From Sulfurimonas sp. HSL-1716 (GTDB lineage: Bacteria; Campylobacterota; Campylobacteria; Campylobacterales; Sulfurimonadaceae): 64,000 nucleotides of DNA. Under the pieces are notes generated by a model that was not told the DNA's origin, did no database searches, and saw only the letters and a list, made by a program, of their open reading frames with translations. Numbering within the stretch: the first letter of the stretch is position 1; the number at the start of each line of letters is the position of its first letter. The translations under genes and the position numbers were made by a program. Shown piece by piece: positions 39,630-52,911 of the stretch. The stretch is taken from the NCBI RefSeq assembly GCF_039645975.1, contig NZ_CP147918.1, positions 1,054,001 through 1,118,000 on the forward strand, given 5' to 3'.

Positions 39630-40163
39630 TTAGAAATCTTTTTCTATTTTAAATGCATTGAAAAGGATGTCTGTGGCAAGCATTTTCGCTCCGTGTGCAA
39701 CTGCATCGAAGATATCTTTGTCGCTCCACTGCATCTCTCTGAGTTCGTCCAGATCGTTCGCATTGACACCGTGTGCATTTTGCACCGCTTTTACGACAAA
39801 CTTCAAAAGCGCTTTTTCTTTTTCTTGCAGGTTGGCGTTGTCAATGTCTTTACGCATTGCATGAACATCTTCTATGCTCCATCCCATCATGTTCACAAGC
39901 AGTCCGGTATTGTAATCCACGCAAAACTCACAGTTTTCACCGCTTGAGACAAGTATGCGAATGGCTGCTAAAAGCGGCATGGAGAGCGTAGGGTGGTTTA
40001 TATAGTATTTTATAAAGTCCAATTGCTGGCGCAGTGCTTCGGGGCTGACGCTAAAGAGCTTGGCATTGTTCCCAACTCTTCCTCTAAGAGCTGTTATCTC
40101 GTCGTAAAGAGCTTTTAGCTCACCTGTTGCTTCATTCGTTTCATATGTCTTGATAAGCGGCAT
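39630..40163 (-). CDS. carboxymuconolactone decarboxylase/AhpD-like protein
   Basis: A 177-residue helical protein of the AhpD/CMD superfamily. The catalytic-type motif SSGENCEFCVDYNTG carries a C-x2-C pair and a downstream basic/His-type relay typical of AhpD-like alkylhydroperoxidases; LSPEALRQQLDFIKYYINHP-type N-terminal helices precede it. A redox or peroxidase-linked role is likely. It leads an operon with the isochorismatase-family gene (one base between) and is divergent from a TetR regulator, with two 16-bp TTGAC-N6-GTCAA operators in the intergenic gap. Confidence 0.85.
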   Translation of the reverse strand: MPLIKTYETNEATGELKALYDEITALRGRVGNNAKLFSVSPEALRQQLDFIKYYINHPTLSMPLLAAIRILVSSGENCEFCVDYNTGLLVNMMGWSIEDVHAMRKDIDNANLQEKEKALLKFVVKAVQNAHGVNANDLDELREMQWSDKDIFDAVAHGAKMLATDILFNAFKIEKDF

Positions 40164-40184
40164 TTTTTCTCCTTTGGAAGTTTG

Positions 40185-40235
40185 TTGACTGTTTGGTCAA
40201 GTGTCATTATAGTAAAAAATTGACCGATTAGTCAA
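40185..40235. promoter_or_regulatory. pair of TetR operators TTGAC-N6-GTCAA
   Basis: Two copies, at 40185-40200 (spacer TGTTTG) and 40220-40235 (spacer CGATTA), centres 35 bases apart, lying between the divergent CMD-like and TetR genes. The pattern suits a TetR-family dimer binding each box, covering both promoters. Confidence 0.75.
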
Positions 40236-40258
40236 GAGGATGTGCTATAATACTTCTT

Positions 40259-40831
40259 ATGAAAGAAACAACCAGACAAAAACTCATAGACGCTACGTTT
40301 GAAGAGGTGTATTCGCACGGTTATCAAGGTGCCGCACTCACGGAGATATTAAAAAACGCAGGTGTGCATAAAGGTTCCATGTATCACTTCTTCGGCAGTA
40401 AAAAAGAGATGGCACTTGCTGCCATAGAGGAAAAAGTGGCTGAAAGAAATCTTGCCAAATATGTAAGAATACTAGAACTTGAAAACGGATATTTGCAAGC
40501 ACTTGCAGATACCCTTTCAAATACGAAAGCAAGGGATTTTCGCAGAGGCTGTCCTATTGCGAACATCGTGCAGGAGATGAGTAATCTGGATGAAGATTTC
40601 GATCGTGCCATGAAAGCCATATACAAGAAGTTTCGGGATTATCTGAAACGCATTTTAGACAAGGCTTTTGAAGCAAAAGAGATGAAAGAGTGCGACACCG
40701 ATAAGATGGCACTTTTTATAACATCGACGGTAGAAGGCGCTATCCTCTCCGCAAAAGCCAGCGGTGATGTCAAAGATTACGAGGATACGGTGGATATGCT
40801 TATATCCGTGTTGTGGCAATACAAAATATGA
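40259..40831 (+). CDS. TetR/AcrR-family transcription regulator
   Basis: A 190-residue repressor: N-terminal helix-turn-helix (YSHGYQGAALTEILKNAGVH KGSMYHFFGSK region, residues 16-44) with TTR-type start and an alpha-helical ligand domain containing RRGCPIANIVQEMSN, which is typical of the YxaF/LmrA subgroup. It should sense a small hydrophobic or electrophilic compound and repress the divergent AhpD-like and isochorismatase-family pair, and itself, through the two TTGAC-N6-GTCAA boxes. A PPOX-like flavoprotein gene follows 15 bases later and may be in the same transcript. Confidence 0.92.
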   Translation: MKETTRQKLIDATFEEVYSHGYQGAALTEILKNAGVHKGSMYHFFGSKKEMALAAIEEKVAERNLAKYVRILELENGYLQALADTLSNTKARDFRRGCPIANIVQEMSNLDEDFDRAMKAIYKKFRDYLKRILDKAFEAKEMKECDTDKMALFITSTVEGAILSAKASGDVKDYEDTVDMLISVLWQYKI

Positions 40832-40846
40832 TAAAAAGGTAAAAAT

Positions 40847-41389
40847 ATGGGAAAACGATATGAAGGGTTGAGCCAGGAATACAAAGAGTTCATCAAAAAG
40901 CAGCATATGTTCTTTATAGCAAGTGCAAGTAACGCAGGTGAAGTCAATCTCAGTCCAAGAGGATATGACGTATTTCGCGTCACTGGCGATAACGAAGCCG
41001 TGTTTTTAGACTATGTTGGAAGCGGCAACAGAACGGCAAGAGATATCGAAGCCGACGGCGAAGTTACGGTGATGTTTTGCTCGTTTGAAGGAAAACCCCG
41101 TATCTTAAGGCTTTTTTGTAAAGGAGAGCTCATCGATAAGTCTGATGAAAAGATGCGTATGCTTTATGATGAAAAAGATCTGGAGGGGATGCGCCGTTTT
41201 GTCAAACTGCATATCTATTGTGTCGAACACAGCTGCGGAATGAGCGTGCCTTATATGGAGTATCAAGGCGAACGCGAACAGAACAGGGAGTTTTGCGTAC
41301 AACAGGAACGCGAAGGCAAACTCCGTGCGTATGAAGTGAAAAATGCCACGCCTCCCGATCTGAGCGCATTTAGAGCAACAAATCTTTAA
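40847..41389 (+). CDS. pyridoxamine 5'-phosphate oxidase-family flavoprotein
   Basis: A 180-residue split-barrel flavin-binding protein. FIKKQHMFFIASASNAGEVNLSPRG and VFLDYVGSGNRTARDIEADG are characteristic of the PPOX family branch that binds FMN or F420-like flavins and is often mislabelled pyridoxamine oxidase. HIYCVEHSCGMSVPYMEY is a conserved C-terminal region. The electron acceptor is unknown. It lies 15 bases downstream of the TetR gene and ten upstream of tag, so these may be co-expressed. Confidence 0.85.
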   Translation: MGKRYEGLSQEYKEFIKKQHMFFIASASNAGEVNLSPRGYDVFRVTGDNEAVFLDYVGSGNRTARDIEADGEVTVMFCSFEGKPRILRLFCKGELIDKSDEKMRMLYDEKDLEGMRRFVKLHIYCVEHSCGMSVPYMEYQGEREQNREFCVQQEREGKLRAYEVKNATPPDLSAFRATNL

Positions 41390-41399
41390 AAGAGACGAG

Positions 41400-41963
41400 A
41401 TGGACAGATATCGCTGCGGCTGGGTCAAACTAAGCGATCCCCTATATGTGCAATACCACGATAAAGAGTGGGGCAGAGCTCTTCATGACGATCGGGCGCT
41501 GTTTGAACTTTTCTCTTTGGAAACACAATCCGCAGGGCTCAGCTGGCTGACGGTGCTGAAAAAAAGAGAAGGGTACCGCAAGGCTTTTGAAGAGTTTGAT
41601 ATCGCTAAAATCGTAAAATACGATGACAAAGATATTGACCGTATCATTGAGAGCGGACTGGTTATCAAAAGCAGGCCAAAGATAACCTCCATCATAGAAA
41701 ACGCAAAAAGGTTTTTAAAGATCATAGAGGAGTTCGGTTCCATAGATAACTATTTTTGGAGCAGAGTGGACGGGAAAACCATTATAAACGACGTACCCGA
41801 TTATAAAACAGCGGCTTGCCGTACGAACATCTCCGATGAGATAACAAAAGATCTGAAAAAAAGAGGTTTCAAGTTTGTGGGTTCGACGACGCTGTACGCT
41901 TTTATGCAGGCTTGCGGTATGGTAAATGATCATGAAAACAGCTGTTTTTGCAAAAATAGCTGA
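41400..41963 (+). CDS. tag: DNA-3-methyladenine glycosylase I
   Basis: A 187-residue Tag enzyme, exactly the family length, excising 3-methyladenine from alkylated DNA. RCGWVKLSDPLYVQYHDKEWG, ETQSAGLSWLTVLKKREGYRKAF and the C-terminal NDHENSCFC are signatures; the first Cys, the His of YHDKEW and the terminal His and Cys bind the structural zinc, and the Glu of LETQSAG binds the base. It precedes a Nudix hydrolase by 17 bases. Other alkylation-repair genes (Ada/Ogt-like at 49.8 kb, MagIII-like at 54.5 kb) are in the same window. Confidence 0.96.
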   Translation: MDRYRCGWVKLSDPLYVQYHDKEWGRALHDDRALFELFSLETQSAGLSWLTVLKKREGYRKAFEEFDIAKIVKYDDKDIDRIIESGLVIKSRPKITSIIENAKRFLKIIEEFGSIDNYFWSRVDGKTIINDVPDYKTAACRTNISDEITKDLKKRGFKFVGSTTLYAFMQACGMVNDHENSCFCKNS

Positions 41964-41980
41964 TATAAGAAGGAGAAGTT

Positions 41981-42733
41981 TTGAAAAAACGTCCAGACAT
42001 TACGTCTTTTGCGCTTAAAGAGGATCGATATGACGGTGTGACCATCGAAAGCGGAGATATCGCTCATACGATTTTGGAATTTGAACAAGAGATAACCGAG
42101 ATACTTGCAGCTATTGAAGATAAAAAACTTCTCTGGATAAAGCTCTCTATCGAGCGCTCGGATTTGATCCCCGTTCTTACAAAATGCGATTTTGTTTTTC
42201 ACCATTGCAACGAGAGAGATATTACTCTGGTAAAAAGGCTTGTCGAAGATCCCGTCATACCGACTGCGGTAAATCATACGTTGGGAGTAGGAGTCGTTGT
42301 TTTTAATAAAAAAAATATCTTGGTCGTTAAAGACAAGATCTGGCAGACCTATAAACTTCCGGGAGGTTTCATAGACGACAGTGAAAATATCTCGCAGGCA
42401 GTCGTAAGAGAAGTTTTTGAAGAAACGGGAGTGGAAGTCGAGTTTGAATCTGTGGTCAGTCTCGGACATTTCTCTCCCGCGCAATTTGGCGAATCGAATC
42501 TTTACGTCGTCTCTTTGGCTAAACCTTTGACGACGCATATAGAGATCAAAGACAAGCATGAGATCATAGAAGCAAGATGGATGGATGTCGATGAATATCT
42601 GAGCCGCGAAGATGTTTTGCCTTATAACAAAGCCATAGTAAAAAATGCGTTTTTAAATGAGAAAGGTCTTAAAGTTCATAACGGTGTCAAGCTGATTTTG
42701 AAGCAGGATATTGAGTACGAGCTCTTCTTTTAA
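41981..42733 (+). CDS. Nudix hydrolase, NUDT6-like
   Basis: A 250-residue two-domain protein. The N-terminal 95 residues (IERSDLIPVLTKCDFVFHHCNE) resemble the pre-Nudix domain of NUDT6/GFG proteins, and the Nudix domain begins at about 98 (HTLGVGVVVFNKKNILVVKD) with the box LPGGFIDDSENISQAVVREV followed by EETG, so the metal-binding Glu residues are complete. It should hydrolyse a nucleoside diphosphate linked to another moiety. The start is a TTG at 41981 with AAGGAG eight bases upstream. The reading frame follows tag closely. Confidence 0.87.
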   Translation: MKKRPDITSFALKEDRYDGVTIESGDIAHTILEFEQEITEILAAIEDKKLLWIKLSIERSDLIPVLTKCDFVFHHCNERDITLVKRLVEDPVIPTAVNHTLGVGVVVFNKKNILVVKDKIWQTYKLPGGFIDDSENISQAVVREVFEETGVEVEFESVVSLGHFSPAQFGESNLYVVSLAKPLTTHIEIKDKHEIIEARWMDVDEYLSREDVLPYNKAIVKNAFLNEKGLKVHNGVKLILKQDIEYELFF

Positions 42734-42749
42734 AGCGGGTTGGTACGAT

Positions 42750-42803
42750 TTTGGCTTCTGTTTAGACGATGGGTATCGAGCATAACGGGATGCGAGAGCC
42801 AAA
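42750..42803 (+). ncRNA. possible three-way-junction RNA element
   Basis: The 152-base gap after the Nudix gene can fold as an outer helix TTTGGCT/AGCCAAA (42750-42756 with 42797-42803) enclosing two short hairpins, CGAT-GGGT-ATCG (42767-42778) and GCAT-AACGGG-ATGC (42780-42793). A further GGG...CCC hairpin follows (42815-42828). The four-base helices are weak, and no known riboswitch class was recognised, so this is a suggestion only. Confidence 0.3.
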
Positions 42804-42885
42804 GGGGCTAAAATAGGGGAAAACTCCCAATAGTATATTTTAGTAAACTAAGTATATTTTTATAAATGAAAGTGTGAAATCCGCT

Positions 42886-43245
42886 ATGATAGAACTTAAT
42901 AATAAAACGTATGACTCTACCTCGGAACTCTTCTTTGAGATATTTAACGACAGGCTAAAGCTCTATATCGTCTGGCATCTGCAAAAAAATTCGATGCGTT
43001 TTAAAGAGCTGAGCGATGTTCTCAGTCCGATCACCAACAAGACTCTTACTGTCAAATTAAAAGAGCTCGAAGCATTGCACCTTGTAACGCGAAAAATGTA
43101 TGCAGAGGTACCGCCCCGAGTAGAATACTCATTAAGTGTTCAGGGAAAATATCTCAGACCTGTGATAGAAGAGATACTTTTCTGGTCGCAGAAATATGCA
43201 AGTTTTATCGGTGAAAAAGATAACCAAAAAAATAATATTGCCTAA
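42886..43245 (+). CDS. HxlR-family transcription regulator
   Basis: A 119-residue winged-helix protein of the HxlR type: LFFEIFNDRLKLYIVWHLQ replaces the usual GGKWKLLIL block, and the recognition region SPITNKTLTVKLKELEALHLVTRKMYAEVPPRVEYSLS is clear. It has no cysteine, so unlike the other HxlR gene here it cannot sense by thiol chemistry. Start is uncertain: the ATG at 42886 or an in-frame GTG at 42874; neither has a strong ribosome site. The AT-rich upstream region contains a TTAGT-AA-ACTAA dyad (about 42838-42849), a candidate site for autoregulation. No divergent target is next to it. Confidence 0.8.
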   Translation: MIELNNKTYDSTSELFFEIFNDRLKLYIVWHLQKNSMRFKELSDVLSPITNKTLTVKLKELEALHLVTRKMYAEVPPRVEYSLSVQGKYLRPVIEEILFWSQKYASFIGEKDNQKNNIA

Positions 43246-43294
43246 AAACATTTTATCTGTTACAATTTCATAATCATAAAAAAAAGGAGAGACC

Positions 43295-43378
43295 ATGAAA
43301 AGTCATCATATACCTATTGCAACATTCACGACGGAAAACCGTTCTTTACTCCTCTCTCTCCTCCTGCACCTGCTGTAA
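43295..43378 (+). CDS. leucine-rich leader peptide of leuA
   Basis: A 27-codon open frame with AAAGGAGAGA just before its ATG. The first 17 residues are ordinary (MKSHHIPIATFTTENRS) and the last ten contain eight leucines in the order LLL, S, LLL, H, LL, then TAA. Codons are TTA, CTC, CTC, CTC, CTC, CTG, CTG, CTG. It is followed by a terminator hairpin and then leuA, the classic arrangement of leucine-controlled transcription attenuation: ribosomes stalled at Leu codons when leucine is scarce should prevent the terminator. The ribosome site AGGAGAGA (43285-43292) is complementary to TCTCTCCT in the Leu-codon run (43355-43362). Confidence 0.85.
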   Translation: MKSHHIPIATFTTENRSLLLSLLLHLL

Positions 43379-43420
43379 TTTTTCACATTTTATTTCATAG
43401 TTTTTAGTTTTTGCCTTTTA

Positions 43421-43442
43421 GGGCGCAATGCGTCCATTTTTT
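43421..43442 (+). terminator. leuA attenuator terminator
   Basis: GGGCGC-AAT-GCGTCC (one G-U pair) followed by ATTTTTT, 42 bases after the leader-peptide stop and 42 before leuA. An outer TGCC/GGCA helix ending in a second TTTTT may extend it to about 43450. An antiterminator partner was not resolved by eye. Confidence 0.75.
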
Positions 43443-43483
43443 GGCATTTTTACTGTTTTTATTGTTATTTGTAAGGATACCCT

Positions 43484-44818
43484 ATGCATACGTATGCAAA
43501 ATATAAACCGTATCCGACGGTTAAATTGGATAAAAGAGAATGGGCGGATAAAACTGCCGCGAAAGCTCCTGTGTGGGTCAGTACCGATTTGCGTGACGGC
43601 AATCAGGCGCTTGCCAACCCGATGGGCATAGAGCAAAAAACTGCGTATTTCAAAGCGCTTGTGGAGTTTGGTTTTAAAGAGATAGAGATTGCTTACCCCA
43701 GCGCATCGCAGACGGAGTTTGATTTTTGCCGCAAATTGATAGAGGAGGGTTTGATACCCGACGATGTGACGATAGGTGTTTTGACACCATCGATCGAGCG
43801 TCACATAGTACGCAGTTTTGAAGCATTGAAGGGTGCAAAGCACATAAATATGCATCTGTACAATCCGACCGCTTCAAACCAGCGCGAAGTGGTTTTTAAA
43901 CGCAGCGAAGAAGCGATCATAGCATTGGCGTTAGAGGGAGTGGAGTGCATCAAAAAAGAGGCGGTGAAGTTTGATGGAAAAGTAGTTTTTGAGTATTCGC
44001 CCGAGAGTTTTTCTCAGACGGAACTTTCATTTGCTTTGGAGGTTTCAAATGCCGTCATAGAAGCATATGACCCGACGGATGAGAACCCTATGATACTTAA
44101 TTTGCCAAATACATTGGAAGCATGCTCTGCAAATATCTATGCCGATCGTATCGAATGGATGTGCAAGCATATAAAAAACAGAGAAAACGTCGTCATCAGC
44201 GTGCATCCGCATAACGACAGAGGATGTGCGGTCGCAAGTGCGGAGTTGGCAGTATTGGCAGGAGCGCAGAGGGTCGAGGGCACCATACTCGGAAACGGTG
44301 AACGCGCCGGCAATGTGGATTTGGTCACGTTGGCGTTTAACTATTACTCAGGAGGGATAGATCCGTGCTTGCATATAGAGAAGGTGGATAACATTTTGAA
44401 GCGTATCACAAGTATTACGGGTATGCAGGTCGGTGATCGTCACCCATATGTGGGTTCTATGATCTATACGGCATTTTCGGGTACGCATCAAGATGCCATA
44501 AAAAAAGGGATGGATCATCATCGTAAAGAAAAAAACAGCATCTGGGAGGTGCCGTATTTGGCGATAGACCCGTGCGACATAGGCAGGGAATACAAAGACT
44601 CAATCCGCATCAACTCCCAGTCGGGCAAAGGCGGAGTGGCATATGTGTTAAAAGAGGTATACGGCATAGATATTCCGCAAAACATACAAGCAAGGCTTGC
44701 CGAAGAGGTCAAAAGCATCTCTCAAAAAAGAGGCTCCGAAATAAGCAGCGACGAGGTACTTGGTATCTATGAAGGTATGATACGGCGTAATTGTAATATA
44801 AAAAATATTGAAATATAG
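43484..44818 (+). CDS. leuA: 2-isopropylmalate synthase, short form without regulatory domain
   Basis: Condenses 2-oxoisovalerate and acetyl-CoA, the first step of leucine synthesis. The 444-residue sequence is of the LeuA type II group (KYKPYPTVKLDKREWADKTA opening, APVWVSTDLRDGNQAL, HPHNDRG metal site, NGERAGNVDLVT), with a complete TIM barrel and the following helical subdomains. The usual length is about 550 residues: the C-terminal leucine-binding domain is missing, and the next gene starts 29 bases after the stop, so the loss is not a nearby frameshift. It therefore probably escapes leucine feedback, and control may rest on the leader attenuator. AAGGA lies nine bases before the ATG. 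Confidence 0.93.
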   Translation: MHTYAKYKPYPTVKLDKREWADKTAAKAPVWVSTDLRDGNQALANPMGIEQKTAYFKALVEFGFKEIEIAYPSASQTEFDFCRKLIEEGLIPDDVTIGVLTPSIERHIVRSFEALKGAKHINMHLYNPTASNQREVVFKRSEEAIIALALEGVECIKKEAVKFDGKVVFEYSPESFSQTELSFALEVSNAVIEAYDPTDENPMILNLPNTLEACSANIYADRIEWMCKHIKNRENVVISVHPHNDRGCAVASAELAVLAGAQRVEGTILGNGERAGNVDLVTLAFNYYSGGIDPCLHIEKVDNILKRITSITGMQVGDRHPYVGSMIYTAFSGTHQDAIKKGMDHHRKEKNSIWEVPYLAIDPCDIGREYKDSIRINSQSGKGGVAYVLKEVYGIDIPQNIQARLAEEVKSISQKRGSEISSDEVLGIYEGMIRRNCNIKNIEI

Positions 44819-44847
44819 TATGATACATGCTAAAAAAAGGAGAAGCC

Positions 44848-45138
44848 ATGAACCCTCAAAAAGTCGTTCGAAACAAGGTGAAAAAGCTCACGGATCTGCC
44901 AAATATCGGCAGCTCTTTGGCAGCAGATCTGCACTCTATCGGTATTGATAATCCTCAGGAACTTCGTGGCAAAGATCCGTTTGAACTCTATGGCATGTTA
45001 TGCGCCAAAAGCGGTCAGCGTCAGGATCCCTGCGTGCTTGATGTCTTTATGTCCATCACGGACTTTATGAACGGTGCAGAGCCTCGTGTGTGGTGGAATT
45101 ATACCGCCGAGCGTAAAAAGCGTTACAAAGATATTTGA
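44848..45138 (+). CDS. Cdd1/mitomycin-resistance-like helix-hairpin-helix protein
   Basis: A 96-residue protein of the pathogenicity-locus Cdd1 family. LTDLPNIGSSLAADLHSIGI is a helix-hairpin-helix DNA-binding motif; the C-terminal CVLDVFMSITDFMNGAEPRVWWNYTAERKKRY is conserved in the family. The family is often called mitomycin resistance protein, but its function is not settled. The ATG at 44848 follows AAGGAGAAGCC closely; the earlier ATG at 44827 is less well placed. A short repeat AGCAATTTTCGGATTG lies just after the stop. Confidence 0.85.
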   Translation: MNPQKVVRNKVKKLTDLPNIGSSLAADLHSIGIDNPQELRGKDPFELYGMLCAKSGQRQDPCVLDVFMSITDFMNGAEPRVWWNYTAERKKRYKDI

Positions 45139-45139
45139 A

Positions 45140-45155
45140 AGCAATTTTCGGATTG
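45140..45155 (+). repeat. AGCAATTTTCGGATTG element, copy 1
   Basis: A 16-base sequence after the Cdd1-like stop, repeated exactly at 49683. It can fold as GCAAT-TTTCGG-ATTG and is followed by T-rich sequence (TTTTGT), so it may be a weak terminator common to this genome. Confidence 0.5.
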
Positions 45156-45205
45156 TTTTGTATCTATATTTGGAATATAATTACTAAATTTTTTTAAGGC
45201 CTTAG

Positions 45206-46111
45206 ATGGAAGAAACTAAAAATTCCACTCGTTATTTTATCGGCATGATCATAGCGATGCTTCTTTGGGGAGTGGCTTGGACGGCGGGAAAAGCTGCTGC
45301 GGAGCACTCAAATGCCCAAGTGGCAGCTTTTTGGCGTTATGCCGTTTCGTTCATCACTATCATTCCCGTTATCCGGTATTTAAAAATACCTCTTAAAACC
45401 GACAGGATGGGATTTGTCTATATGCTTGGAGCAGGGCTTCTTACATCGCTTTTCAACTATCTTTTCTTTGCAGGGCTCTCCCACGGACAAGCGGGATACG
45501 GCGGTACGATGGTCACGGCACTTGCTCCCATCTTTACCTATCTGATGTCCATAGCTGTCTTGGGTATAAAAGTCTCGACAAGACAGGTCATAGCACTCTC
45601 TATCGGAGTGTTCGGAGCACTCATACTGCTTCGCGTGCCGTTTGAAGGATTTGCTTTTTTAAATATAGAGAGCTCATACTTTTTGGAGTGTGCCGTAGTT
45701 TGGGCGTTTGTCACCATCCTTTCGCAAAAAGCCTCAAAAAGAGCAAATCCGATGTTTTACACGGTCGTAGTCTTTGGGATAACAGGTTTTACGAACATGA
45801 TCTTTGCACTGCCGCACCATCCGTTTGATCTTCATGCGTATGACGCAGTATTTTGGTCGACCATCATCTTTATCGGAGTATTTCCCGGAACATTCAGCAC
45901 GGCACTGTTTTTTCTTTCGGCGGGAAAGATCGGCGCACACAAAACGGGAGTCTTTATGTTCATCGTCCCCGTGGGTGCTATCGTTTCAAGCAGGGTGGTA
46001 TATGGAGAAAATATAGCGCTTTCTACCGTTATCGGTTGTCTGCTTGCTTTTTTTGCCGTTATACTGTTTAATATGAAAAGAGATTCCAAAACAGCGGAAC
46101 AAAAGGTTTGA
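45206..46111 (+). CDS. EamA/DMT-superfamily transporter
   Basis: A 301-residue inner-membrane protein with ten hydrophobic helices in two five-helix EamA repeats (about 10-150 and 155-290). MIIAMLLWGVAWTAGKAAAE and GLLTSLFNYLFFAGLSHGQA are typical of drug/metabolite exporters. The transported compound is unknown; amino acids, nucleosides or dyes are usual for the family. Its stop is one base from the start of the DUF815 ATPase gene, so the two are co-translated, though no functional link is known. Confidence 0.9.
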   Translation: MEETKNSTRYFIGMIIAMLLWGVAWTAGKAAAEHSNAQVAAFWRYAVSFITIIPVIRYLKIPLKTDRMGFVYMLGAGLLTSLFNYLFFAGLSHGQAGYGGTMVTALAPIFTYLMSIAVLGIKVSTRQVIALSIGVFGALILLRVPFEGFAFLNIESSYFLECAVVWAFVTILSQKASKRANPMFYTVVVFGITGFTNMIFALPHHPFDLHAYDAVFWSTIIFIGVFPGTFSTALFFLSAGKIGAHKTGVFMFIVPVGAIVSSRVVYGENIALSTVIGCLLAFFAVILFNMKRDSKTAEQKV

Positions 46112-46112
46112 C

Positions 46113-46883
46113 ATGCAGCATAATATTGATTGGAAAAACTGTTACGGAGCTATTTGGCGGGCGAAAAAAGAGTATCTAAAGCCCGTTAAAAACATAGACG
46201 GGATCACTTTTGACGATCTTGTAGGTATAGAAAGACAAAAAAAAGAGATTATAAGAAATACCGAGCGTTTTTTAGATGATCTTCCCTCCAACAACGTTTT
46301 ACTCTGGGGTGCAAGAGGCACGGGAAAATCTTCTCTTATCAAAGCGGTTTTAAATGAGTACGGTACAAGAGGCCTTCGTATCATCGAGATAGACAGAGAC
46401 GATCTTGACGACCTCATAGAGATCGCAGATCTGATCCGCAATCTGCCATACAAGTTCATCGTCTTTTGTGATGATTTGTCGTTTGAAGAGGGTGAAAAAG
46501 GGTATAAAGGTCTCAAACGCATTTTAGAAGGCTCCATCGAAGCACCGCCTGAAAATGTCAAGATATACGCCACTTCAAACAGACGCCATCTCATCACCGA
46601 GTATCAAAGAGACAATGAAGGTACGGTGATCGGAAACAATGGTGAACTTCATTACTCGGACAGCGTAGAGGAGAAGATATCACTCAGCGACAGGTTCGGC
46701 CTGTGGCTCTCTTTTTACCACGGTACCCAAGCCGAATACTTAAAAGTCGTAGACAGTTACTTTAAGGAGTATGAAGGCGACAGAGAAATCCTGCATGCAG
46801 AGGCTTTACGCTTTGCACAGGTAAGAGCAAGCAAGAGCGCAAGAACGGCGAAGCAGTTTTATAACAGTTATTTTCAAAAGTAA
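46113..46883 (+). CDS. DUF815-family P-loop ATPase
   Basis: A 256-residue AAA-like ATPase. DDLVGIERQKKEIIRNTERFL precedes Walker A WGARGTGKSSLIKAVL and Walker B FVFCDDLSFE; ATSNRRHLI resembles sensor I with an Arg finger-like RR, and SLSDRFGLWLSFY is typical of DUF815, a group related to RavA/MoxR and chaperone-like AAA proteins. Function is unknown. It begins one base after the DMT transporter and is followed by a cupin gene. Confidence 0.87.
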   Translation: MQHNIDWKNCYGAIWRAKKEYLKPVKNIDGITFDDLVGIERQKKEIIRNTERFLDDLPSNNVLLWGARGTGKSSLIKAVLNEYGTRGLRIIEIDRDDLDDLIEIADLIRNLPYKFIVFCDDLSFEEGEKGYKGLKRILEGSIEAPPENVKIYATSNRRHLITEYQRDNEGTVIGNNGELHYSDSVEEKISLSDRFGLWLSFYHGTQAEYLKVVDSYFKEYEGDREILHAEALRFAQVRASKSARTAKQFYNSYFQK

Positions 46884-46894
46884 AAGATGAGACT

Positions 46895-47239
46895 ATGCAT
46901 AAAATATCTAAAACGAATGCAGAACATTATATCTGGGGCAAGGAGTGTGAGGGCTGGCATCTGCTAAAAAGCGATGGGCTCAGTGTCATAGAAGAGAGGA
47001 TGCCGCCGCATACAAGTGAAGCGATGCATTACCATGAACATTCCCAGCAGGTCTTTTACATTCTTTTTGGAGTGGCTACGATGAAGTTTTCGGATAAAAC
47101 TATTCAAATACAGGCCGGGGAATCTTTACATATAAACGCAAAGATAGCACATCAGATGTGTAATGAGAGTGATGAAGAGCTTTGTTTTCTTGTCGTTTCT
47201 CAGCCAAAAAGCCACGGAGACAAAATAGTTATAAACTGA
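46895..47239 (+). CDS. cupin-domain protein
   Basis: A 114-residue single cupin. Motif 1 is HTSEAMHYHEHSQQVFYILFG, supplying the His and Glu/Gln metal ligands, and motif 2 is GESLHINAKIAHQMCNES with the second His. Such small cupins bind a metal or small ligand and are often isomerases, dioxygenases or sensors. It converges with the MocR-type regulator, whose 3' end overlaps it by 11 bases. It may be co-transcribed with the DUF815 gene 11 bases upstream. Confidence 0.85.
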   Translation: MHKISKTNAEHYIWGKECEGWHLLKSDGLSVIEERMPPHTSEAMHYHEHSQQVFYILFGVATMKFSDKTIQIQAGESLHINAKIAHQMCNESDEELCFLVVSQPKSHGDKIVIN

Positions 47240-48599
47240 GATCTCTCCATATCTTTGCCAGCTCTTTTACGGCGGATTCGATCTCGTTTTCTTTCAATCC
47301 TCCAAATCCCATTCTAATAGCATCCCATTTTTCGTTGAAATGATCTTTTGTAAAGTAAAGTTTGATACCTTTTTTTTGTGCTTCATCGTTTAGTACCGTA
47401 GTATCTATCTCGTATTTTGAACGGATGTTGATAGAAAGTCCTCCGCCTTCACTTACTATTTTGGCAAATTTCCCGAGGTGTTTGTTGATCGCCTGCTGCA
47501 TGATGTCGTGTTTTTTACGGTTAAGATTTCGAACTTTGCGCAGGTGGCGCTCCCAGTGTCCATCTTTTAAAAAAAGCTCCAGAGTCTTTTGTGTGGCGAG
47601 GCAAACTCGTGAAAAATAACCGTGAAAGTTTTTATATTCTTTTATCAGGCGATGAGGTAAAACTATATAACCGACTCGAAGTGCGGGTGAAAACGCTTTG
47701 GAAAAAGTTCCGACATAGATGACCCTATCGTTTGTATCAAGTCCTTGAAGCGAAGGAATAGGGCGAGATCGATAGGTGAGTTCACTGTCGTAGTCGTCTT
47801 CTATGATAAAACCGTTCTTCTCTTTCGCCCAAGCCAGAAGCTTCAAACGCTGTGAGACAGGCATGGAGACTCCCGTAGGGTATTGATGTGATGGAGTGAT
47901 GTAAACTATTTTTGCATCGCTCTTTTTTAACGTCTCGACTCGTAAGCCGTTTTCATCGACAGGTACGGGTGTTATATCGTATCCATGCTGCATAAAGACT
48001 CTGCGTGTTACGTAATACCCGGGATCTTCTATAGCAAAACCGTATTGCAGCGGTTGTAAAAGATCGGCTATCATGCTCATAGCATCGGCAAAAGCCCCGG
48101 TAACGACTATTTGCGACGGATCACACTTTACGCCTCTTGATGTACTTAAATAGCGGCAGAGTTCAACACGAAGAGAGTATTCTCCCTGTCCGTCGGTATA
48201 TGCTCCAAAATCAATAGTCTCGTTGATCGCTTTGGAAAAAAGGCGTTTATAAAGTTTCAGCGGAAAGAGATCTTTGTCTAAACGGGCAGGGTGAAAGTCG
48301 TAACGGTATACGGGCGGTGTTGTAGACTCTTTTAGCATGGATGAATGGTTTGAAAGAGGCAAAAAGTCGGCATCGGCTACAAAATATCCGCTTTTCGGCC
48401 GGCTTTCGATATAGCCTTCGGCATAGAGCTGATTATATGCCGATTCGACGGTATTTTTGCTGATCTTATACTCTTGAGAAACTTTGCGGATAGAAGGCAG
48501 TTTGCTGCCTACGGCAAGGTTTGTCGTAATATCGTACTTAATCGCTTCGTACAGCTGAATATGTAAAGGAGTTTTTGCCGAAGTGTCGAGATTGTACAT
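47229..48599 (-). CDS. MocR-type GntR/aminotransferase regulator (PdxR-like)
   Basis: A 456-residue fusion of a GntR winged helix (about residues 1-75, LYEAIKYDITTNLAVGSKLP, SKNTVESAYNQLYAEGYIES) and a fold-type I aminotransferase domain that binds pyridoxal phosphate; the PLP Lys lies in YVGTFSKAFSPALRVGY, with VTGAFADAM and IEDDYDSEL typical of the family. MocR proteins control vitamin B6 or amino-compound genes. It is divergent from two PPOX-type flavoprotein genes, with a CACTTGT-A-ACAAGTG palindrome in the shared 94-base promoter region, so it likely controls them and itself. It overlaps the cupin by 11 bases. Confidence 0.92.
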   Translation of the reverse strand: MYNLDTSAKTPLHIQLYEAIKYDITTNLAVGSKLPSIRKVSQEYKISKNTVESAYNQLYAEGYIESRPKSGYFVADADFLPLSNHSSMLKESTTPPVYRYDFHPARLDKDLFPLKLYKRLFSKAINETIDFGAYTDGQGEYSLRVELCRYLSTSRGVKCDPSQIVVTGAFADAMSMIADLLQPLQYGFAIEDPGYYVTRRVFMQHGYDITPVPVDENGLRVETLKKSDAKIVYITPSHQYPTGVSMPVSQRLKLLAWAKEKNGFIIEDDYDSELTYRSRPIPSLQGLDTNDRVIYVGTFSKAFSPALRVGYIVLPHRLIKEYKNFHGYFSRVCLATQKTLELFLKDGHWERHLRKVRNLNRKKHDIMQQAINKHLGKFAKIVSEGGGLSINIRSKYEIDTTVLNDEAQKKGIKLYFTKDHFNEKWDAIRMGFGGLKENEIESAVKELAKIWRDLSL

Positions 48600-52598: not shown

Positions 52599-52671
52599 AA
52601 CAAGTCTTTTGTTTTTAAACGATATGAGCCGTTAACGCTTTTTTCGTTATGATTTTATAAATTTATTTCTC

Positions 52672-52815
52672 AGGGAAGGTGAAACTCCTTACTGGTGGTG
52701 ACTGCCGCAGCTGCAGAAGTCCACGAGCGCTTTGTAAAAGGATAACTTTTGCAAAGGTCGAGCAGACTTGGTGTAAATCCAAGACCAACGGTCAAAGTCC
52801 GGATGAAAGAGAATG
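52672..52815 (+). promoter_or_regulatory. FMN riboswitch (RFN element)
   Basis: The conserved RFN blocks are all present in order: AGGGAAGGTGAAACTCC, TACTGGTGGT, a variable stem, CCACGAGCGC, a second variable stem, GGTGTAAATCCAAGACC, AACGGTCAAAGTCCGGATG and AAGAGAATG. It lies 97 bases before ribB and binds FMN to switch riboflavin synthesis off. In the expression platform GAATGTA (52811-52817) can pair with TACATTC (52861-52867), a possible alternative helix; no clear terminator T-run was seen, so control may be at ribosome access. Confidence 0.95.
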
Positions 52816-52911
52816 TAAATAAGTCTTATTTTTGTTTTTATATAGGGATAGTACTGTCTATACATTCACCCTGATTCAATAAGTTTTACTTTCTAAAAAA
52901 GGTATTACTCA

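What the first reader, a model, noticed from the sequence alone, without database searches (positions are those of the whole stretch)
43270..43483. Leucine-codon attenuator upstream of leuA
A 27-codon leader peptide with eight leucines in its last ten residues is followed by a GC-rich hairpin with a T-run and then leuA. This is the classic layout for transcription attenuation by leucine starvation, well known for enteric leu operons. I am not aware how widely it is described in Campylobacterota. Seen directly: peptide, hairpin, gene. Not resolved: the antiterminator partner helix.
Basis: partly seen in the sequence, partly recalled or inferred. Interest (0 to 1): 0.65.

Follow-up and report, generated by a model that had tools for sequence, protein, structure and literature searches.

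The report
Leucine-sensing leader before spare leuA
A tiny leucine-rich peptide gene sits in front of a second, feedback-proof copy of the first leucine-synthesis enzyme and very probably makes that copy respond to leucine shortage; the leader-peptide idea is already known in this phylum, but the gene it controls (often fused to a methyltransferase) and the missing antiterminator are not.

Summary
In detail: a 27-codon ORF (43295-43378) with a good Shine-Dalgarno (SD) site, 8 Leu in the last 10 residues, then a hairpin and T-runs before leuA. It is the only such ORF in the window, with none as Leu-rich in 60 shuffles. It is real: all 20 Sulfurimonadaceae orthologues and all 16 from a second family carry a leader ending in a Leu (or Val-Leu) run. 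(1) The gene is not the housekeeping leuA but an accessory copy lacking the leucine-feedback domain; the housekeeping copy elsewhere has that domain and no Leu leader. In 13 of 20 orthologous loci the accessory enzyme is fused to a SAM methyltransferase (lost in the window), once on a plasmid. (2) The hairpin is a conserved two-tier element; the T-run next to the inner stem is special to the window. (3) No antiterminator was found: the hairpin folds equally well wherever the ribosome is. Most likely this is leucine-responsive, ribosome-mediated attenuation, coupled to termination in another way (masking of a C-rich, G-poor Rho-loading stretch is my first choice, not shown). LeuL leaders are published for Campylobacterota (PMC3847290, PMC11955535). 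Verdict: new variant of a known kind.

The parts
43238..43266 (+). predicted sigma-70 promoter: TTGCCT - 17 nt - TACAAT (extended -10), expected start of transcript about 43272-43275
   Evidence: consensus scan (promoter-like sites in the region are no more frequent than in shuffles); the TTGC...TACAAT spacing is conserved in most orthologues. Start site inferred, not mapped.
43285..43292 (+). Shine-Dalgarno sequence of the leader, AGGAGAGA; perfectly complementary to 43355-43362
43295..43378 (+). leader peptide gene, 27 codons, MKSHHIPIATFTTENRSLLLSLLLHLL
   Evidence: leader with invariant S-LLLL-x-LL end in 16 orthologues, some leader in 20/20
43346..43375 (+). regulatory codon run TTA CTC CTC TCT CTC CTC CTG CAC CTG CTG
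   Evidence: sequence
43355..43362 (+). TCTCTCCT, the stretch of the Leu-codon run that can pair with the leader's own SD (8 bp)
   Evidence: 18 of 19 leaders have at least 8 consecutive pairs
43334..43411 (+). C-rich, G-poor (C 20, G 7), nearly unstructured stretch (candidate Rho-loading site): Leu run plus spacer
   Evidence: similar in all 19 orthologues; 0.9% of 78-nt stretches of the window meet comparable limits
43412..43446 (+). conserved two-tier hairpin: TGCC / GGGCGC-AAT-GCGTCC / GGCA
43447..43451 (+). T-run after the closing stem (TTTTT), the conserved termination-like tail
43484..44818 (+). accessory leuA, 444 aa, 2-isopropylmalate synthase of the TIGR00970/NF002991 kind without the LeuA_dimer feedback domain

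Best explanation
A leucine-responsive, ribosome-mediated attenuator that makes an accessory, feedback-domain-less 2-isopropylmalate synthase depend on the leucine supply. SHOWN by sequence and comparison: a leader ORF with SD ending in a run of Leu codons; conservation of the run while the rest of the peptide drifts (which suggests that codons are read, not a special peptide); a conserved two-tier hairpin with U-run 29-41 nt after the stop codon; an accessory LeuA that keeps the catalytic core but lacks the leucine-feedback domain. INFERRED: with leucine plentiful the ribosome finishes the leader and leaves, transcription mostly stops at the hairpin, and the enzyme is off; with charged Leu-tRNA scarce the ribosome waits on the Leu run and RNA polymerase reads through into leuA. 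Because no antiterminator can be found, the coupling is probably not by alternative hairpins. My first choice is that the waiting ribosome covers a C-rich, G-poor, unstructured Rho-loading stretch (Leu run plus spacer), with the hairpin as pause or end point (I give this coupling step about 0.4). The helix between the leader's own SD and the Leu run may stop re-initiation once the ribosome has left. Attenuation would replace the lost allosteric feedback.
For: Leader unique in the window against shuffles. Leader with Leu or Val-Leu run in 20/20 family-1 and 16/16 second-family orthologues. The S-LLLL-x-LL end is invariant in 16 leaders while residues 4-20 vary; CTC and CTG make up 107 of 133 Leu codons of the 20 leaders against 38% in window genes. 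Housekeeping leuA of the same family: none of 18 upstream regions has a convincing Leu leader. Hairpin: 97.6% of cells paired, 0/500 shuffles as high, 7 cells with both sides changed; a related hairpin in the second family. LeuA_dimer absent here, present in the housekeeping copy. Catalytic motifs shared with M. tuberculosis LeuA 1SR9. C-rich, G-poor spacer in all 19. Rho present in the genome. C. jejuni LeuL is translated (PMC11955535), and its RNA ends shortly after the stop codon (PMC3847290).
Against: No expression data from this organism. No antiterminator. The rut-like stretch is more U- than C-rich, and comparable stretches make up 0.9% of the window, so it is not proof of Rho. The hairpin has an internal loop of 5 and 7 nt and no A-tract, so its strength as an intrinsic terminator is unknown. 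The SD to Leu-run pairing is only modestly beyond synonymous-codon expectation per species (P 0.02-0.24), and the species are related.
Confidence: 0.68

Rival explanations
1. Classical enteric-type attenuator: a stalled ribosome frees a segment that pairs with the 5' arm of the terminator (antiterminator).
For: Leader, Leu run, hairpin and U-run are all present.
Against: No segment between the Leu run and the hairpin pairs stably with its 5' arm; predicted pairing of that arm with anything upstream is below 0.1 in 18 of 19 orthologues and 0.22 in one with the ribosome at the first Leu codon, and the inner hairpin stays at its unconstrained probability. The spacer is poor in G.
Confidence: 0.13
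2. Control of translation rather than transcription, as in the actinobacterial LEU element: the Leu run pairs with an SD (its own or that of leuA), and leader translation opens it.
For: 8-bp AGGAGAGA:UCUCUCCU helix with the leader's own SD in nearly all orthologues, changed in concert to AGGAGAAG:CUUCUCCU in one genus; similar 7-8 bp helices in unrelated canonical LeuL leaders of three other families. The minimum-energy fold of the window leader also pairs part of the leader end with the 3' end of the region, near the leuA SD.
Against: The strong partner is the leader's SD, not that of leuA; the pairing with the 3' end is absent from the centroid. A conserved hairpin with U-run has no role in this model.
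Confidence: 0.12
3. The ORF makes a small functional peptide and the hairpin is the end of its own transcript; leuA has another start.
For: A hairpin with U-run follows the ORF.
Against: The peptide body is poorly conserved while the Leu codons are invariant; the ORF is always directly before leuA; only 32 nt lie between the T-run and the leuA start in the window, and no promoter-like site was listed there.
Confidence: 0.05

Closest known systems
LeuL of Campylobacterota (C. jejuni leuABCD leader; Porcelli et al. 2013 PMC3847290; Ribo-seq 2025 PMC11955535)
   Same: 20-35 aa leader ending in Leu codons before a leuA gene in the same phylum; the authors propose ribosome-stalling antitermination and report LeuL in most Epsilonproteobacteria with leucine genes
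   Different: The one described in detail leads the housekeeping leuABCD; here an accessory leuA without feedback domain and without leuBCD behind it. Many canonical leaders of other families carry an LPKIEIKN core that is absent here. I could not read their supplementary list, so this very leader may be in it.
Enteric leu operon attenuator (E. coli/Salmonella leuL; Rfam holds a Leu leader family)
   Same: Leu-codon run, terminator-like hairpin, leucine biosynthetic gene
   Different: No antiterminator found; no Rfam match; Leu run at the very end of the peptide; different peptide
LEU element of Actinobacteria (Seliverstov et al. 2005, PMC1262725)
   Same: Leu-run ORF before a leuA; Leu run complementary to an SD
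   Different: There the partner is the SD of leuA at the base of a pseudoknot; here it is the leader's own SD, plus a hairpin with U-run
tnaC-type Rho attenuation (E. coli tna operon; from own knowledge, also named as a model in PMC1262725)
   Same: leader peptide, no antiterminator, C-rich spacer masked by a stalled ribosome (proposed here)
   Different: tnaC reads a conserved peptide plus free tryptophan; here codons appear to matter; Rho use not shown

Membership tests
Ribosome-mediated amino-acid attenuator (enteric leu/trp type) | short translated leader with a run of codons for the end product | tested here: met
   translation itself inferred from the SD and from C. jejuni LeuL
Ribosome-mediated amino-acid attenuator (enteric leu/trp type) | terminator hairpin with U-run between leader and gene | tested here: met
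   conserved two-tier hairpin plus U-run; terminator activity not tested
Ribosome-mediated amino-acid attenuator (enteric leu/trp type) | mutually exclusive antiterminator helix | tested here: not met
   19 sequences
Ribosome-mediated amino-acid attenuator (enteric leu/trp type) | readthrough rises when the cognate amino acid is scarce | not testable with these tools
   needs RNA measurements
Rfam leader or riboswitch families | covariance-model match above gathering score | tested here: not met
   only the FMN riboswitch elsewhere in the window
LeuL of Campylobacterota | 20-35 aa peptide with several C-terminal leucines upstream of a leucine biosynthetic gene | tested here: met
   27 aa, 8 Leu in the last 10
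LeuL of Campylobacterota | precedes the housekeeping leuA(BCD) | tested here: not met
   second leuA; followed by Cdd1, EamA and DUF815 genes
LEU element (Actinobacteria) | Leu run pairs with the SD of leuA at the base of a pseudoknot | tested here: inconclusive
   weak pairing in the minimum-energy fold only; pseudoknot not tested
2-isopropylmalate synthase, TIGR00970/NF002991 kind | catalytic HMGL-like domain plus IPMS_D2 | tested here: met
   NF002991 650 bits over a 455 cut-off; aligned to 1SR9
2-isopropylmalate synthase, TIGR00970/NF002991 kind | C-terminal LeuA_dimer allosteric domain | tested here: not met
   none; present in the housekeeping copy; TIGR00970 score below its cut-off

The most novel reading that the evidence does not exclude
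The module is a leucine-starvation-induced, mobile system that makes an isopropylmalate methyl ester for export. The accessory LeuA has lost feedback, and in 13 of 20 family loci it is fused to (and in 8 of 16 second-family loci directly followed by) a SAM methyltransferase whose named relatives include several carboxylate O-methyltransferases; exporter genes lie next to several copies. Yeast Tmt1 methylates 3-isopropylmalate, and the ester is reported as a secreted signal of amino acid starvation. In the window the methyltransferase has been lost, leaving a feedback-free synthase under attenuator control.
Probability: 0.2. Interest if true: 0.8.

Novelty: new variant of a known kind. Interest (0 to 1): 0.5.

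Why it matters
It suggests that these bacteria run leucine synthesis with two first enzymes under two different controls: one with protein-level feedback, the other apparently controlled only through a leader that reads leucine codons. It also points to Leu leaders without an antiterminator, so leader peptides in this phylum may work through Rho or an unknown coupling. The LeuA-methyltransferase fusion, one copy of it on a plasmid, makes a starvation-induced methyl ester testable with one enzyme assay.

Tried and rejected
Antiterminator search by folding with the ribosome at the first Leu, fourth Leu and stop codon in 19 orthologues: none. Base pairing of the conserved UUUUUAG-UUUUGC stretch with the A-rich 5' end or with other leader segments, by eye: not conserved. 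Alternative small hairpin GCC/GGGC (GGCU/AGCC in the second family): possible everywhere, but it uses columns already fixed by the main hairpin and no ribosome position would select it. Own-genome pattern search for other Leu runs: 11 hits against 15 for the reversed pattern, uninformative, and the pattern itself missed the window leader because of its Ser. Genome-contig scan with LeuA gave one locus, Sulfurimonas sp. BM502, a decayed copy. The first upstream scan is void for minus-strand loci, which are returned in contig orientation; redone. One regex-based pass over the second family failed and was redone by coordinates.

Full report
OBSERVATION. The window holds an ORF of 27 codons at 43295-43378 (MKSHHIPIATFTTENRSLLLSLLLHLL) with SD AGGAGAGA two bases ahead of the ATG, a hairpin GGGCGC-AAT-GCGTCC at 43421-43435, T-runs, and leuA from 43484. 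Among 966 ATG-started ORFs of 10-45 codons it is the most Leu-rich at its end, and in 60 order-2 Markov shuffles no ORF with an SD exceeded 5 Leu in the last 12 residues, against 8 here. A terminator-like pattern alone is not remarkable (3 found, 1.9 expected in 2.2 kb). Rfam has no match here.

CONSERVATION. The window lies in a 2.26-Mb single-contig genome. Orthologues of this LeuA (at least 73% identical) occur in 19 of 228 genomes of its family (the window's own included), in four genera, 20 loci in all; records with names place the family as Sulfurimonadaceae. All 20 have a leader (19; G033 is L010); 16 are 28 codons long and end S-LLLL-x-LL. A second family of the order has 62-66% identical orthologues; all 16 examined have a leader ending SLVVVLLLKLR or a close variant. 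Residues 4-20 of the family-1 peptide vary while the final Leu positions are invariant, which points to codon reading, not to a special nascent peptide. CTC and CTG make up 107 of 133 leader Leu codons against 38% in window genes.

THE GENE. The genome has two LeuA proteins of the same broad kind. The one at C1:1982488-1983765 is 555 aa, has the LeuA_dimer allosteric domain and no Leu leader; none of 18 housekeeping leuA upstream regions of the family shows a convincing one (one weak ORF with 4 Leu, L013). The window's copy is 444 aa and stops after IPMS_D2: no allosteric domain. Its catalytic motifs align with M. tuberculosis LeuA 1SR9 (DLRDGNQ, HPHNDRG, GNGER, the HQDAI and GREY region), so it should be active; which residues are catalytic is from my own knowledge of that enzyme. 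A third hit is NifV-like, in a nif context (read from the sequences).

THE METHYLTRANSFERASE. In 13 of the 20 loci the truncated LeuA is fused to a C-terminal SAM methyltransferase domain. In the second family a methyltransferase gene follows LeuA directly in 8 of 16 (some recognised only by their LDIGCGDGK motif). The domain scores best with BioC and trans-aconitate methyltransferase models, well below their cut-offs; its closest solved relative is 3CCF of unknown function (E 9e-50); a predicted structure (mean pLDDT 86) is nearest 3CCF, with JHAMT, trans-aconitate methyltransferase and BioC among many class I methyltransferase matches (TM 0.66-0.73). The last three methylate carboxylates, so a carboxylate substrate is a fair guess, not a finding. 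Yeast Tmt1, a trans-aconitate methyltransferase, methylates 3-isopropylmalate, and a cited paper title calls the ester a secreted starvation signal (PMC3197675). The tree of the LeuA domain needs four changes of fusion state; with the adjacent genes in the second family, one early association followed by losses is the simplest reading, and the window genome lacks any close homologue of the domain. One fusion sits on plasmid pSULKU02 of Sulfuricurvum kujiense, a related truncated LeuA, annotated as two pieces, on pACIB of Aliarcobacter cibarius, and one genome has two copies: the module appears to move. Exporter genes are close in several loci: EamA in the window, a TauE gene next to the G003 and G121 copies, a DMT transporter near the pACIB copy, and by inspection LysE-like genes in two second-family loci.

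THE HAIRPIN. In 17 of 19 alignable orthologues the element is exactly 35 nt: TGCY - 5 nt - GGGCGN - 3 nt - NCGYYY - 7 nt - RGCR, then a T-run (weaker in one), 29-41 nt after the leader stop. Over 17 distinct sequences 97.6% of cells pair (0 of 500 shuffles as high; slid versions 27-53%), with 7 cells changed on both sides in 2 pairs. The two left out of that count have a 37-nt and a 34-nt form. The second family has a related hairpin at the same place (consensus fold only). In the window the T-run also follows the inner stem directly; in most others it does not.

COUPLING. When the RNA downstream of a ribosome at the first Leu codon, fourth Leu codon or stop codon is folded, the inner hairpin keeps its probability in all 19, and its 5' arm finds no stable partner upstream. 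So the mutually exclusive antiterminator, a defining part of enteric attenuators, was tested and not met. The 78 nt before the hairpin are C-rich and G-poor (C 16-25, G 4-9) and almost unstructured in all 19; stretches like this are about 0.9% of the window, and Rho is present. This fits masking of a Rho-loading site by a waiting ribosome, but does not prove it. The leader SD is complementary over at least 8 bp to the Leu run in 18 of 19 orthologues (one has 6), and in one genus both sides are changed together. Synonymous-codon shuffles give P of 0.02-0.24 per species, so this is suggestive. Similar 7-8 bp matches occur in unrelated canonical LeuL leaders of three other families (combined P over family medians 0.02).

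WHAT IS KNOWN. Porcelli et al. 2013 (PMC3847290) reported LeuL in C. jejuni and in most Epsilonproteobacteria with leucine genes, with short RNAs ending just after the stop codon; Ribo-seq confirmed LeuL translation (PMC11955535). Their supplements were not readable here, so I cannot say whether this leader is listed. The actinobacterial LEU element (PMC1262725) shares a Leu run complementary to an SD, and its authors raised Rho for leaders without terminators. No paper in the library joins isopropylmalate synthase, methyltransferase and Sulfurimonas. The general idea is therefore known; the accessory feedback-free target, its fusion, and the tested absence of an antiterminator make it a new variant.

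IN PASSING. Canonical leuA genes (TIGR00973) of other families carry a different leader: 27 of 50 upstream regions in six families share a core LPKIEI(K/R)N directly before x-Leu-Leu, in 26 distinct DNA sequences with all kinds of synonymous codons; the string occurs 27 times in 827 kb of held sequence, every time just upstream of leuA on its strand. In the 14 leaders whose spacer I printed, no hairpin with U-run was evident by eye. Amino-acid-level conservation suggests a nascent-chain sensor; the string is absent from the paper library. The 50 regions were not a random sample (30 best-scoring plus 20 chosen for spread).

Noticed in passing
L119-L168 (upstream of canonical leuA in six other Campylobacterota families), e.g. 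core at about L150:324-347: Leader peptides with a near-invariant core K-x-x-K-x-LPKIEI(K/R)N-x-LL just before leuA, conserved at amino-acid level through synonymous changes, in the examples printed without an evident terminator hairpin: a candidate nascent-chain sensor of leucine metabolism.
   Followed up: partly
L006:1501-3546, L035-L040, L008-L010, L169:4001-6052: Fusion of feedback-free LeuA to a SAM methyltransferase; plasmid-borne in Sulfuricurvum kujiense pSULKU02 (WP_013449937.1).
   Followed up: partly
L064, L088-L097, L106, L107, L075-L077 (second family): Accessory leuA with a Val-Val-Val-Leu-Leu-Leu leader (METFITHQTIHQPQSIAQFSNASLVVVLLLKLR), in 8 of 16 followed by a separate methyltransferase gene.
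   Followed up: partly
L012, L017, L099, L101-L103 (family f9, Arcobacteraceae-like): A third kind of accessory truncated leuA with a short conserved leader MSVNI-K-FISFSxLFLF whose end is almost wholly pyrimidine; no Leu run.
   Followed up: no
L105 (G349, family f7): Full-length LeuA (545 aa) with a Leu-rich leader MKRYSPSIQSTTRFSVLLLLSSFLLSL.
   Followed up: no
window 52662-52818 +: FMN riboswitch, 94.5 bits.
   Followed up: no
window 39630-48599: The accessory leuA sits among small variable genes (HxlR, TetR and GntR/MocR-like regulators, Nudix, EamA, cupin) that recur in different order near its orthologues, as expected of a mobile neighbourhood (some named from sequence by eye).
   Followed up: partly
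L033 / L048 (Sulfurimonas sp. BM502): A decayed copy: leader present, accessory leuA interrupted by three stops.
   Followed up: no
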